NCBI RefSeq assembly: GCF_000745975.1
Contig: NZ_JQKJ01000003.1
Coordinates: forward strand, 124,001 to 188,000
DNA from: Desulfobacter vibrioformis DSM 8776
GTDB taxonomy: Bacteria; Desulfobacterota; Desulfobacteria; Desulfobacterales; Desulfobacteraceae
Direction of reading: 5' to 3'
DNA length: 64,000 nucleotides
Position numbers and translations under genes: made by a program. The notes beneath the pieces are model-generated. The model worked only from the letters and a program-made list of their open reading frames with translations. It was not told where the DNA came from and made no database searches. Shown here piece after piece: positions 6,705-10,308 of this stretch (its first letter is position 1; each line of letters starts with the position of its first letter).

Positions 6705-7013
6705 ATCGAATGGAATCTGGGTGTTGACAGAATATGCAGGGATGCACCTCAGCTCGTCTTTGCCTATGCCTCTAATGAATTCGGAACGGCTTCGGCCGAC
6801 TGTCATACCGCCCTTGCTTACCTCGAACTTGCCTTACCGGCATTTGGTCTGGGAAGTTGCTGGGCTGGCTATGTCAATTATGCCGCTGCTCAATGGCCGG
6901 GTTTATCAGAAAAACTCAGGCTTCCTGAAAATCATACCTGTCATGGTGCGCTCATGGTTGGAATACCAAAAATAAAATATGCCAGGGCACCTAAAAAAAT
7001 GAGCCGGATATGA
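6705..7013 (+). pseudogene. Nitroreductase, C-terminal remnant
   Basis: This frame has no usable start codon, so automatic gene finding would miss it. It begins straight after the acuI stop, in the same frame as acuI, and stays open for about 100 codons to TGA at 7011-7013. The translation contains DRICRDAPQLVFAYAS, ALAYLELALPAFGLGSCWAG and HGALMVGIPKIKYAR. These match the C-terminal half of the nitroreductases that carry GxGSCWAG and a final GYPKxKYxR. The FMN-binding N-terminal half is absent. A deletion apparently joined the 3' part of this gene to acuI. A 255-base open frame in another phase (6721-6975) is a shadow of it. Confidence 0.8.
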
Positions 7014-7135: not shown

Positions 7136-7819
7136 TTATTGCCTACTTATGGTTTGATTCGGGATAATAGCTTTTTGAGACCAGTGGACGTCAATGTTCT
7201 GGATGAATTTGGCTTTAACGATTTTGGCTCTTTGCTTTAACCATTTATCTCCATCGTAACGAATATAAATACCTTCGCCTTGCTCGGGCCCAAAACACGA
7301 ACGCCCCATTAAGGCTTCTAATTGCGGCAATGTGAAGATCCCTTGTTGGATAAAGGGAACGGATGAAATATTCATCTGTTCAAATTTTCGATTTCTTGGC
7401 TTTAATGATAGGAATTGGTTGTTTTGTTTATCAAAGATATCAAAACCTAAGAAATAATCAGGCAGTCTATTATATCCGATTGAATGTTTTGCAAAACACC
7501 ATTCACCAAACAAAATATACCGGTCAAAGAGATGGTCAAACAAAATTTCCATTCGGGGAGTCAGCCAGTTTCCCACTTTCTTCCACTGCCCCAAATAAGG
7601 CGGAGAAAGCATAGAACCCCTATTCTGAAGAATTAAGCTGCCTTGCGTATCAAAAGAAATACCTAAGTTTGCCCCGTCTATTTTTTCTTCGACAATCAAA
7701 ATATTTTTCAAAAAGATTTTTCGGTTCTCCTGAGATAGCACCTTATCATCCCTAACACTGTTTCCCCCAAGCATTATCAGATGGGGAGTAGAAGGAAATT
7801 TGAAAAATATCTGATTCAT
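7136..7819 (-). CDS. RNA ligase family protein (Rnl2/DRB0094-like nucleotidyltransferase)
   Basis: A 227-residue ATP-dependent ligase core. The AMP-accepting lysine is Lys46 in motif I (EEKIDGAN). Motif III is FGEWC (104-108), motif IIIa GFDIFD (125-130), motif IV EGIYIR (182-187) and motif V RAKIVKAKF (197-205). It has no OB fold or BRCT domain, so it is not a DNA ligase of the replicative kind. Members of this family seal nicked or broken RNA. I chose the ATG at 7819 because it overlaps the stop of the upstream PIN gene in an ATGA; an in-frame ATG 45 bases earlier is inside that gene. It is the last gene of the cassette and should work on RNA ends made by its nuclease partner or by an invader (inference). 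Confidence 0.85.
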   Translation of the reverse strand: MNQIFFKFPSTPHLIMLGGNSVRDDKVLSQENRKIFLKNILIVEEKIDGANLGISFDTQGSLILQNRGSMLSPPYLGQWKKVGNWLTPRMEILFDHLFDRYILFGEWCFAKHSIGYNRLPDYFLGFDIFDKQNNQFLSLKPRNRKFEQMNISSVPFIQQGIFTLPQLEALMGRSCFGPEQGEGIYIRYDGDKWLKQRAKIVKAKFIQNIDVHWSQKAIIPNQTISRQ

Positions 7820-8355
7820 TTTTCCATCTTTTTTTCGTATTTTACTTTCACAAAATCCGGACACAGAAAATTTACTTTAATTCCTGATTCGTCAAGAGCA
7901 TCTTTCCATCCCCACCATTTGCTATCCGTTGCTTCCATTATCTGCGGTTTCTTATGATGCGCATTTGCCACGGCAACAAACTTCCTATCACTGATATCAA
8001 AATCGGCAAGTCCTGGGTGGTCTGGAAATTCATCATATGAATCATCTTTAGGGGTAATCGTGACCCTGTTAGATTCCGGAAAGCTGTATCGATTATAATG
8101 AAGCCATTTTAAAAATTCGTCACCCACGCCTGGTTGTCCACTCATGGAAAGCTTGCCTCGATATTCATTAAAAATTTCGTCGCCATTATCTAACACAAGA
8201 TTGCCGTTTTCAATGACCTCCATTATTGAGTCAACACACTGCTGGACACATATGATCAATTCTTCAGGAATAGACATAGGATCAACGGCAAGGTTAGCCG
8301 TTTTGGGAACGTTGGTGTCAATTACAATGGGAGAAGAGGCCGTCTGATTATTCAT
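7816..8355 (-). CDS. PIN-like nuclease, middle gene of the cassette
   Basis: A 179-residue protein that I read as a PIN-domain ribonuclease. The acidic positions expected for PIN are present in order: Asp13 in IVIDTNV, Glu60/Glu64 in DEIFNEY, Asp123 in FDISDRKFVAVA and Asp144 in EATDSKWWGW. The last strand region (IKVNFLCPDF) also fits a PIN fold. Similarity elsewhere is low, so family placement rests on these motifs. Its start overlaps the end of the ATPase gene by 8 bases and its stop overlaps the ligase start by 4, so the three proteins are probably made together. There is no small antitoxin gene next to it, which argues against a plain VapC toxin. Confidence 0.7.
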   Translation of the reverse strand: MNNQTASSPIVIDTNVPKTANLAVDPMSIPEELIICVQQCVDSIMEVIENGNLVLDNGDEIFNEYRGKLSMSGQPGVGDEFLKWLHYNRYSFPESNRVTITPKDDSYDEFPDHPGLADFDISDRKFVAVANAHHKKPQIMEATDSKWWGWKDALDESGIKVNFLCPDFVKVKYEKKMEK

Positions 8356-9760
8356 CCTGAAGATCCTTTTGAATTTTTACCTGTTGAATTCTTTTTTCCA
8401 TTGCCGCTTTGGCATGTTTAGTCACGTCCCCCATTTCATCTCCAAAAAAATTTTTAGGCCAGTTACTAATATTGCCAAAGATATCAATTTGAAGAGGCTC
8501 CAGCTTGGCTGGCAATTGATCCACTTTTGCAAAATAGGCGGAAATTTTATCTGCGGCAATGCTATCTTCGGCTATACGTCTTTGGAATCGCTTCAAAAAA
8601 TGTTCGGAGTGAGTCTCTATTATCAACTGAATATTTCGATCCTTTCCCTTTTCCCTTGAATGAATAACGTCAATCATTACATCTGCCAGTGCGGCCTGGG
8701 CGCTTGGGTGCAGATGAATTTCAGGCTGTTCCATGATAATGATGGAGTTGGCCGGTGCATAAAAGCACTGAACCAGAACCGGGAGCACCTGTGATACGCC
8801 AAACCCTACATCAGGGAGGTCCACCCAGTCTTTTGAGCCTTTTGTCTGGACTTTCACCTCATATTCCTGGCGCTGCGCTGAAATCCGCCTTACTTTAAAT
8901 TCATCAATTAGATCCATATTTTTCAGGCTTTTTGCAACGATCTGTTCTATTGGCTGCGTGGGTTTTTTGTATCCCAAATTTATTTTCCGATTTTTTGCCG
9001 CAAGTATGGCGGCAATAGTTGATTCCCCAGAATAACCAACGCTTTCTGGAGTAATTCCACTCCAAGAATAGAGTCTATCGGTTTTTTCCCGCAACGGGCC
9101 AAGATAAAATATGGATTTAAACAGGTTTTCATGTTCAAGGTTCAGACTTTGAACAAACTGGGCGTTTTGATGGTATGAAACTACTTCATCCGGGAATCCG
9201 TAAAATCTGACAGGCGTGCCTGGGTACCAGACCCTTCCTGTATTTCTTTTTAAAGGATAATTTTTGCAAAAAACGTCATATTCATTTTTTGTTCCTGATT
9301 TCTTCTTAAGCATTCCAATTTGGAGCTCTTCTGCATTAGTCGCATTTAGGGTGTAATAAAATTCTTCCATACAAAGAGTTTGACCACCATCTTCCTGCAT
9401 GGCAATTTTTCCATCAAATCCCATGTGGCCGACCGCATATCTTTTTTTGTTTAATGCATCTTCAAATTTCAGTTCCTTGCTCAAATCCCAGTTATAGCCG
9501 AAGGAAATTTTTTTTCTGATATCTCTTCTAAACACCATTTCCTGGAAAGACCCTAACTGAACAGCAGAATTCTTATCCCCGGGATAGAGGACTGCTTTTC
9601 TATCAGATGACTGAACCGTCTGTTTAAGCATCATCAAGAAGTGCCCGATACTTGATTTACCAGAGCTGTTGGTCCCAAAAAACAGGGTTACCGGGGCCAT
9701 TTTTATTGAGTCTGTGTCTTGCCAACCCTTGAAATTTTTTATGGTCAAATTTTGGAGCAT
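8348..9760 (-). CDS. SMC/OLD-like AAA ATPase with DUF3696-type C-terminus
   Basis: A 470-residue ATPase of the AAA_15/OLD-like group. The N-terminus LTIKNFKGW leads to Walker A GTNSSGKSS (29-37). An ABC-type Walker B (IIMEQPEIHLHP, about residue 340) and a switch histidine (IETHSEH, about 383) follow. The C-terminal stretch PLQIDIFGNISNWPKNFF matches the DUF3696 pattern. There is no TOPRIM nuclease domain, so the nuclease activity is presumably supplied by the PIN gene downstream. Such ATPases act as sensors or clamps in several anti-phage systems (for example with PtuB or AriB). It is the first gene of the cassette; the promoter should lie in 9761-9890. Confidence 0.85.
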   Translation of the reverse strand: MLQNLTIKNFKGWQDTDSIKMAPVTLFFGTNSSGKSSIGHFLMMLKQTVQSSDRKAVLYPGDKNSAVQLGSFQEMVFRRDIRKKISFGYNWDLSKELKFEDALNKKRYAVGHMGFDGKIAMQEDGGQTLCMEEFYYTLNATNAEELQIGMLKKKSGTKNEYDVFCKNYPLKRNTGRVWYPGTPVRFYGFPDEVVSYHQNAQFVQSLNLEHENLFKSIFYLGPLREKTDRLYSWSGITPESVGYSGESTIAAILAAKNRKINLGYKKPTQPIEQIVAKSLKNMDLIDEFKVRRISAQRQEYEVKVQTKGSKDWVDLPDVGFGVSQVLPVLVQCFYAPANSIIIMEQPEIHLHPSAQAALADVMIDVIHSREKGKDRNIQLIIETHSEHFLKRFQRRIAEDSIAADKISAYFAKVDQLPAKLEPLQIDIFGNISNWPKNFFGDEMGDVTKHAKAAMEKRIQQVKIQKDLQDE

Positions 9761-9891: not shown

Positions 9892-10035
9892 CAATACCGC
9901 AAAACTCACCTTTTTTGAATTTGTTGCCATTCGGCGGACTGCCACTTTCGTCCGAAATTGATGCAGTTCGAACTCTTTCACTGCTTGGGCCAATAACCGA
10001 TTTCAATCCTTTTCGGGGTGAGTTTTGCGGTATTG
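9892..10035. repeat. 19-bp perfect inverted repeat flanking a 106-base core
   Basis: CAATACCGCAAAACTCACC (9892-9910) is repeated exactly, inverted, at 10017-10035. The match stops sharply on both sides. The core has only a partial palindrome (TTCGG 9931-9935 with CCGAA about 20 bases on) and no convincing gene. The size and the perfect ends resemble a small non-autonomous mobile element, or a long-armed regulatory hairpin. It lies in the 420-base gap between the ATPase gene and the tRNA-Phe terminator; nothing else is recognisable there. Confidence 0.7.
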
Positions 10036-10232: not shown

Positions 10233-10308
10233 TGGTGCCCAGGAACAGAATTGAACTGCTGACACGGGGATTTTCAGTCCCCTGCTCTACCGACTGAGCT
10301 ACCTGGGC
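10233..10308 (-). tRNA. tRNA-Phe (anticodon GAA)
   Basis: The minus strand folds into a canonical 76-base tRNA. Acceptor GCCCAGG pairs with CCTGGGC, the D arm is GCTC/GAGC, the anticodon stem GGGGA/TCCCC closes the loop CTGAAAA with anticodon GAA, and the T loop is TTCAATT. The 3' CCA is encoded. Its 3' end faces the ATPase-PIN-ligase cassette, the side on which tRNA-targeting islands usually integrate. Confidence 0.97.

What the first reader, a model, noticed from the sequence alone, without database searches (positions are those of the whole stretch)
7136..9760. Three-gene ATPase, PIN nuclease and RNA ligase cassette
The sequence shows an SMC/OLD-like ATPase, a PIN-type nuclease with all four acidic positions and an ATP-dependent RNA ligase with motifs I-V, joined by 8-base and 4-base overlaps. 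Known defence systems pair similar ATPases with nucleases (Septu, PARIS), and PrrC couples an ATPase domain to tRNA cleavage that T4 counters with an RNA ligase. Here cutting and sealing enzymes are in one operon. I infer a system that cuts RNA when the ATPase is triggered and repairs host RNA through its own ligase. I cannot place it in any named system.
Basis: partly seen in the sequence, partly recalled or inferred. Interest (0 to 1): 0.88.

Follow-up and report, generated by a model that had tools for sequence, protein, structure and literature searches.

The report
Defence cassette with its own RNA ligase
Three overlapping bacterial genes make a switch-like ATPase, a probable RNA-cutting enzyme and an RNA-sealing enzyme; the first two match a catalogued candidate virus-defence pair, and the sealing enzyme is a recurrent third partner without a model in that catalogue, which suggests an immune system that can mend its own cuts.

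Summary
Window 7136-9760 (- strand) encodes an AAA_15/DUF3696 ATPase, a PIN-like protein and a minimal Rnl2-type RNA ligase, overlapping by 8 and 4 bases. It is not unplaceable: the first two genes match PADLOC's candidate defence pair HEC-03 (HEC-03B E=7e-128, HEC-03A E=1.3e-30); the ligase matches no PADLOC model. The ligase is a recurrent third gene: of 35 loci found with the HEC-03A model, 35 have the ATPase and 26 the ligase; of 80 ligase-found loci, 53 have all three in order. Rows compared span 11 named phyla. Catalytic residues are conserved. ATPase clade B is one clade while its ligases are not (AU p=1.5e-84); they are slightly more like ligases of other cassettes in the same phylum. 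Best reading: an ATPase-gated PIN RNase whose 5'-phosphate/3'-OH cuts the ligase can reseal without end healing. This is inferred; nothing was assayed, and the PIN fold is likely but not proven. Ligase-less cassettes with intact PIN residues argue against the ligase being an obligatory antidote. Verdict: new variant of a known candidate kind.

The parts
8348..9760 (-). Gene 1: AAA_15/AAA_21 (SMC/OLD-like) ATPase with C-terminal DUF3696, 470 aa; PADLOC HEC-03B
   Evidence: G29, N31, S32, G34, K35 (Walker A) and E344, P346, E347, H349-P352 invariant in 53 aligned sequences
7816..8355 (-). Gene 2: PIN-like nuclease, 179 aa; PADLOC HEC-03A; acidic set D13, E64, D120/D123, D144
7136..7819 (-). Gene 3: ATP-dependent RNA ligase, Rnl2-type nucleotidyltransferase domain only, 227 aa; nucleotidyl lysine K46
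8348..8355 (-). 8-base overlap of gene 1 stop and gene 2 start
   Evidence: tight junctions recur
7816..7819 (-). 4-base overlap of gene 2 stop and gene 3 ATG
   Evidence: tight junctions recur

Best explanation
A HEC-03-type candidate defence operon with a built-in RNA ligase. Shown: three tightly coupled genes with conserved active-site residues, recurring together in many genomes, on plasmids and, in some relatives, next to BREX-type or Hma-type genes. Inferred: the DUF3696 ATPase holds the PIN protein inactive and releases or positions it when infection is sensed; the PIN active site cuts RNA, most likely tRNA or rRNA, by metal-dependent hydrolysis leaving 5'-phosphate and 3'-OH; the ligase, which needs such ends, reseals host RNA, limiting leaky self-damage and letting the cell recover. 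Translation arrest would then be reversible rather than suicidal. Because the ligase is only a nucleotidyltransferase domain, it probably needs the PIN or ATPase subunit to bring it to the break.
For: HEC-03A/B matches. Three-gene linkage by two routes: of 35 HEC-03A-found loci 35 have the ATPase and 26 the ligase (three were search centres known to carry the ligase, without them 23 of 32, and without G400 too, reached earlier through a ligase locus, 22 of 31); 53 of 80 ligase-found loci have all three. The seven-site PIN pattern is standard in 71 of 76 ligase-bearing rows; ligase motif residues are invariant in 54 sequences. Ligase model pLDDT 94.1; 51 PDB hits at E<=0.001, the 50 printed all RNA or DNA ligases, led by TbREL1 and T4 Rnl2. 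A related, longer ligase family outside the cassette is followed by an HD + AAA_33 protein (kinase-like; tested in L062 and L073), whereas the cassette carries no end-healing enzyme. Defence setting: PglXI-type gene in the operon of L015, BrxHI-type helicase directly after the ligase in L136, the same locus as L009 by identical ATPase, HmaB-type gene before the cassette in L137; conjugative plasmids. Between the two ATPase clades, ligases are somewhat more alike within a host phylum (49.2% against 45.9%; 21 of 2000 permutations reach it), ATPases are not (33.4% against 33.9%; 1128 of 2000), as expected if the ligase acts on host RNA.
Against: Nine of 35 HEC-03A loci lack the ligase, and 8 of 10 ligase-less rows keep the standard PIN pattern, the other two having conservative D-to-E changes, so the ligase is not strictly needed to survive the nuclease. 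Five ligase-only loci exist, plus one with PIN remnants. No firm structural or profile match of the middle protein to a PIN. Phylum likeness of ligases is a small effect and could be local recombination. No defence gene was noticed by eye beside the window copy. One ligase-bearing row has Q at site 64. No trigger, substrate or phage activity is known.
Confidence: 0.48

Rival explanations
1. The ligase is part of the attack: PIN makes the ends and the ligase turns them into a dead-end product (mis-joined or circular RNA, or 5'-adenylylated RNA that phage repair enzymes cannot use).
For: Ligase is a lone nucleotidyltransferase domain (227 aa); isolated T4 Rnl2 N-domain is recalled to adenylylate but seal poorly. 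An Rnl3 is said to adenylylate strongly and ligate weakly (stated in PMC12153264, part 2). In the one Acinetobacter soli plasmid region opened, the third place is taken by an HNH nuclease, a plain effector.
Against: The ligase-less HEC-03 clade presumably works without it. Ligase similarity follows host phylum somewhat, more natural for repair of host RNA.
Confidence: 0.2
2. The ligase repairs RNA cut by something else (phage or rival ribotoxins, or a neighbouring defence system), and the ATPase-PIN pair trims or senses broken RNA: an RNA-repair operon rather than a toxin with antidote.
For: Ligase-only loci persist; relatives in the longer ligase family are in repair-looking operons with HD/kinase-like proteins.
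Against: No kinase or phosphatase in the cassette, needed for the ends left by metal-independent ribotoxins (PMC7824862 passages). ATPase-PIN without ligase is a recurrent form and matches a defence candidate.
Confidence: 0.17
3. The system acts on DNA: a PIN/FEN-like nuclease and a nick-sealing ligase under an OLD/SMC-like ATPase, a DNA restriction or repair module.
For: The ATPase profile matches OLD-family and PtuA chains in the PDB and GajA models weakly; DNA ligases appear among structural hits of the ligase.
Against: Best fold matches are RNA ligases (TbREL1, T4 Rnl2, NgrRnl), Pfam RNA_ligase; the weak Pfam kin of the middle protein is PIN_3.
Confidence: 0.1

Closest known systems
HEC-03 (PADLOC-DB candidate; HEC = Hma-embedded candidate)
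   Same: ATPase = HEC-03B and middle gene = HEC-03A by HMM; relatives lie in operons with helicase, methylase, HmaB-, PglXI- or BrxHI-type genes.
   Different: No PADLOC model matches the ligase. Ligase-less members form one clade with mostly shorter PIN C-termini plus four single tips.
NsnB and PDC-M55A (PADLOC-DB models)
   Same: Next best full-length matches of the ATPase: E=1.1e-59 and 1.8e-57.
   Different: Far below HEC-03B (425.5 against 201 and 193 bits); the middle gene and the ligase match no model of those systems.
HARP (PIN-type protein-only RNase P) with Rnl3 RNA ligase, PMC12153264
   Same: A PIN metallonuclease gene linked with an ATP-dependent RNA ligase gene.
   Different: No ATPase; ligase is Rnl3, typically bidirectional to HARP; authors favour C/D-box RNA maturation and circularisation and discuss a toxin-antitoxin reading (parts 1-2 of 3 read).
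PARIS (AriA ATPase + AriB Toprim tRNase)
   Same: ATPase with an RNase partner; AriB cuts leave 3'-OH, with 5'-phosphate expected (PMC12409363 passages).
   Different: AriA model's best stretch is residues 284-389; the middle gene is PIN-like, not Toprim; no ligase gene is part of PARIS as recalled.
Septu / retron Ec78 PtuA-PtuB
   Same: AAA ATPase coupled to a nuclease; PtuA chains among PDB matches of the ATPase profile.
   Different: PtuA equivalog 25.5 bits against cut-off 500; PtuB nuclease is HNH (recalled).
Pnkp1-Rnl-Hen1 and T4 Pnkp-Rnl1 RNA repair
   Same: RNA ligase repairing cleaved RNA.
   Different: Those work with end-processing enzymes (PMC4411300 passages); this operon has none.

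Membership tests
HEC-03 (PADLOC candidate) | HEC-03B-type ATPase | tested here: met
   E=7e-128, residues 1-461 on profile 1-456/458
HEC-03 (PADLOC candidate) | HEC-03A-type partner next to it | tested here: met
   E=1.3e-30, profile 3-154/159; 8-base overlap
HEC-03 (PADLOC candidate) | Embedding in a defence operon | tested here: inconclusive
   Not noticed by eye in the first 20 kb of the window; seen in relatives such as L015, L136, L137
HEC-03 (PADLOC candidate) | Phage protection | not testable with these tools
   No assay; the original embedding study was not found in the library
PIN domain superfamily | Conserved acidic set in PIN order starting with DTN | tested here: met
   D13, E64, D120/D123, D144
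PIN domain superfamily | Significant profile match | tested here: inconclusive
   PIN_3 in 14 of 49 members, best E 0.0014, none for the window protein; hhalign to six PIN-type proteins: probability 36 over 19 columns, single sequences 0.7 to 72; controls 3.5 and 0.4
PIN domain superfamily | PIN fold | tested here: inconclusive
   Model pLDDT 95.9; 0 PDB hits at E<=0.001, VapC 5ecw prob 0.25, TMt 0.50; top viral hit DUF1308, prob 0.97, E 0.048, nature of that family not established
Rnl2-type ATP-dependent RNA ligase | KxDG nucleotidyl motif and motifs III-V | tested here: met
   EEKIDGAN, GEW, FD, EG, RAK invariant or at least 90% in 54 sequences; Pfam and fold
Rnl2-type ATP-dependent RNA ligase | Accessory domain beside the nucleotidyltransferase domain | tested here: not met
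   227 aa, model shows the nucleotidyltransferase domain only; the requirement is recalled
PARIS | Toprim nuclease AriB | tested here: not met
   Middle gene matches only HEC-03A in PADLOC at E<=1
Septu/PtuA | PtuA equivalog score | tested here: not met
   25.5 bits against cut-off 500
PrrC | PrrC anticodon nuclease protein | tested here: not met
   No PrrC among hits shown for the three proteins in PADLOC or NCBIfam at E<=1 (for the ATPase the best 25 of 118 PADLOC families were shown)

The most novel reading that the evidence does not exclude
Immunity with built-in repair: a whole lineage of ATPase-gated PIN ribonucleases carries a dedicated RNA ligase that seals the nuclease's own 5'-P/3'-OH cuts in host RNA, making the antiviral shutdown reversible. 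The ATPase-PIN pair evolves as sensor and cutter, while the ligase is swapped among cassettes within a host lineage because it is matched to host RNA.
Probability: 0.36. Interest if true: 0.87.

Novelty: new variant of a known kind. Interest (0 to 1): 0.63.

Why it matters
RNA cleavage in phage defence is usually treated as a one-way road to arrest or death, with RNA ligases on the phage's or a repair operon's side. A widespread defence-type operon that encodes both cutter and sealer would make reversibility a testable design feature. It also gives a catalogue entry (HEC-03), for which I found no described mechanism, a third subunit and a concrete biochemical hypothesis, with two predicted active sites and clean mutants.

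Tried and rejected
Considered and rejected: Septu, PARIS and PrrC membership; a chance cluster of this genome only; the 242-aa GTG-start ligase (relatives align from the ATG at 7819).

Led nowhere or weak: PDB sequence search for the middle protein, alone and as a profile; hhalign to six PIN-type proteins from relatives, mainly motif I; Rfam, which found only the tRNA above a family's gathering score; promoter-like (8 against 7.8 expected) and terminator-like (5 against 3.6) sites; phage records for the middle protein (none), while phages encode only remote ligase relatives (187 records, listed identities 25-32%); GC of the cassette, 0.39-0.42 in kilobases 7-10 against 0.40-0.57 elsewhere in the first 20 kb, not decisive. 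The paper search for DUF3696 with RNA ligase gave 0 papers (open-licence PMC papers only). The Bacillota draw, 0 of 398, is not absence: the model also missed the genome of L022, whose cassette is clear by tblastn. The defence-neighbour contrast (16 of 85 cassette loci against 0 of 21 controls, Fisher p 0.037) is biased because the probes came from cassette loci; used as description only.
Full report
What is there. Window 7136-9760 (- strand) holds three genes: an ATPase of 470 aa (8348-9760), a protein of 179 aa (7816-8355) and an RNA ligase of 227 aa (7136-7819), overlapping by 8 and 4 bases. The window is G000:C3:124001-188000, and as DNA the cassette matches once in that genome. The ATPase matches AAA_15, AAA_21 and DUF3696; the ligase matches RNA_ligase PF09414; the middle protein has no Pfam match of its own. 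A profile of the ATPases finds an OLD-family chain (9.7e-11) and PtuA chains in the PDB.

Placement. PADLOC-DB places the ATPase as HEC-03B (E=7e-128; next NsnB 1.1e-59 and PDC-M55A 1.8e-57) and the middle protein as HEC-03A (1.3e-30, its only match); the ligase has no match at E<=1. HEC stands for Hma-embedded candidate; several HECs, HEC-06 among them, are said to be active against viruses (passages of PMC10855318 and PMC12988326). A search for HEC-03 with PADLOC found one paper, which lists it once (PMC13356809, passage). The original embedding study was not found in the library, so I cannot say whether it mentions the ligase.

Recurrence, from the ligase side. A genome-collection scan gave 220 relatives; the best 80 were kept. 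53 of the 80 carry ATPase, PIN-like gene and ligase in order, copies with broken frames such as L044 included; 5 have the ligase alone (L005, L017, L027 with an ATPase remnant, L042, L048), one (L019) has PIN remnants, and 21 have a longer ligase without ATPase or PIN match. I printed gene order for 12 of these 27. In four of the seven long-ligase loci among them (L062, L063, L073, L077) a similar protein follows the ligase; Pfam shows HD plus AAA_33 in the two tested (L062, L073). In the ligase tree the six long ligases used form one clade (100), apart from all cassette and ligase-only rows (100).

Recurrence, from the HEC-03A side. The HEC-03A model matched 8 of 395 genomes in the window's phylum, 15 of 398 in that of Marinobacter G396, 12 of 195 in that of Corallococcus G397 and 0 of 398 in that of G398, Bacillota (where the model is known to miss a case). 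Of these 35 loci, 35 have the ATPase and 26 the ligase: 4 of 8, 11 of 15, 11 of 12. Without the three centre genomes, known to carry the ligase, it is 23 of 32; without G400 too, reached earlier through a ligase locus, 22 of 31. Of 11 plasmid records with the ATPase I opened four: Aeromonas, Rhodococcus and Azotobacter have the ligase next, Acinetobacter soli has an HNH protein instead. Tistrella pTM2, found through the ligase, has the cassette with no defence gene annotated beside it. In IMG/VR contigs 3 of 73 pattern hits encode the middle protein, and the 3 have all three genes.

Enzymes. Ligase: motif residues invariant in 54 sequences; model mean pLDDT 94.1; 51 PDB hits at E<=0.001, the 50 printed all RNA or DNA ligases with TbREL1, T4 Rnl2, NgrRnl and Rnl3 kin first. 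It is a nucleotidyltransferase domain only. Middle protein: D13, N15, D56, Y65, D123 invariant and E64, D120, D144 at least 90% in 49 sequences. Over 86 rows the seven-site pattern is standard in 71 of 76 ligase-bearing rows (exceptions: one Q64, one D120E, one D144E, two gapped rows) and 8 of 10 ligase-less rows. The model is confident (95.9), but no PDB hit reaches E 0.001; VapC 5ecw has probability 0.25. The best viral match, DUF1308, has probability 0.97; the paper search did not tell what DUF1308 is. PIN_3 matches 14 of 49 members weakly and two of nine further proteins. I hold PIN at about 0.85. VapC52 uses the comparable set D6, E48, D99, E117 (PMC13273310 passages).

Evolution. In an ATPase tree of 86 rows the ligase-less ones make one clade of six (98) plus four single tips (L099, L138, L141, L151), 5 changes in all; the sample is enriched for ligase by construction. 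Residues after PIN position 163 number 7-11 in the clade of six, 3, 18, 23 and 26 in the tips, and 11-27 in 75 of 76 ligase-bearing rows. So the last helix may serve the ligase, or merely hold its gene's start signals. Over 76 rows, distances of ATPase and PIN agree (Spearman 0.75), PIN and ligase 0.34, ATPase and ligase 0.28 (maximum of 500 shuffles 0.15). ATPase clade B (14 ligase-bearing rows, seen) is one clade (100); its ligases as one clade are rejected (p-AU 1.5e-84) in a set of 41 rows, 14 B and 27 A rows that I picked; PIN does not reject it (p 0.22). Between A and B, ligases are more alike within a phylum (0.492, n=201) than across (0.459, n=625; 21 of 2000 permutations), ATPases are not (0.334 against 0.339; 1128 of 2000). 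The ligase is thus exchanged between cassettes. That fits a ligase matched to host RNA; recombination between co-resident cassettes would also do it.

Setting. The commonest neighbour cluster, a helicase, occurs in 11 of 86 cassette loci, and methylase-type clusters in 8 and 6. PADLOC scans of representatives gave PLD_Helicase (L038), PglXI (L015), HmaB (L137) and BrxHI (L136, whose ATPase is identical to that of L009). In L009 and L015 the ligase stop overlaps or touches the start of the next gene, which is the BrxHI-type gene as scanned in L136; other genes lie between the PglXI-type gene and the cassette. Six such probes hit 16 of 85 cassette loci and 0 of 21 control loci, a biased contrast. 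In the window the neighbours look by eye like household genes, with a tRNA-Phe at 10233-10308; beyond the cassette nothing in the window was scanned against PADLOC.

Mechanism. AriB, a metal-dependent RNase, leaves 3'-OH and, as expected by its authors, 5'-phosphate (PMC12409363 passages); for PIN enzymes I recall the same. Ends of metal-independent RNases need kinase and phosphoesterase before ATP-dependent ligation (PMC7824862 passages). This operon has a ligase and no healing enzyme, so cutter and sealer fit chemically. HARP with Rnl3 is the nearest precedent I found for a PIN gene linked to a ligase gene (PMC12153264, parts 1-2 of 3). PIN-dependent defence without an antitoxin is reported for DS-3 and DS-5 (PMC13092281 passages). 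I infer ATPase-gated RNA cutting with ligase resealing, at 0.48. Against it: PINs with intact sites live without ligase, so there the ligase is at most a tuner or recovery factor.

Novelty. The pair is a catalogued candidate; no PADLOC model matches the ligase, and no paper in the library holds both DUF3696 and RNA ligase. I call it a new variant of a known kind.

Noticed in passing
window 9892-10035: Element with perfect 19-base terminal inverted repeats just upstream of the cassette; two near-complete copies (95-96% over about 145 bases) and several shorter pieces elsewhere in the genome: MITE-like.
   Followed up: partly
window 6721-6990: Looks by eye like the remnant of a nitroreductase-type gene between the oxidoreductase and the cassette; no search run.
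   Followed up: no
window 10233-10308: tRNA-Phe (gaa) on the - strand about 470 bases from the cassette, a possible insertion landmark.
   Followed up: no
L099 7900-8658: In an Acinetobacter soli plasmid an HNH endonuclease stands where the ligase normally is, after helicase and N-6 methylase genes; the ATPase is annotated in two pieces.
   Followed up: partly
L096, L092, L153, L044, L019: Cassette copies in which the ATPase or another gene is broken into pieces; described only.
   Followed up: no
L062, L063, L073, L077: A separate operon type: longer RNA ligase (about 270 aa) followed by an HD + AAA_33 protein (tested in L062, L073) and, in L077, preceded by a methyltransferase; looks like an RNA repair operon.
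   Followed up: partly
L015 2767-4671: A second, diverged ATPase of the same family (34% identity) between the PglXI-type gene and the cassette.
   Followed up: no
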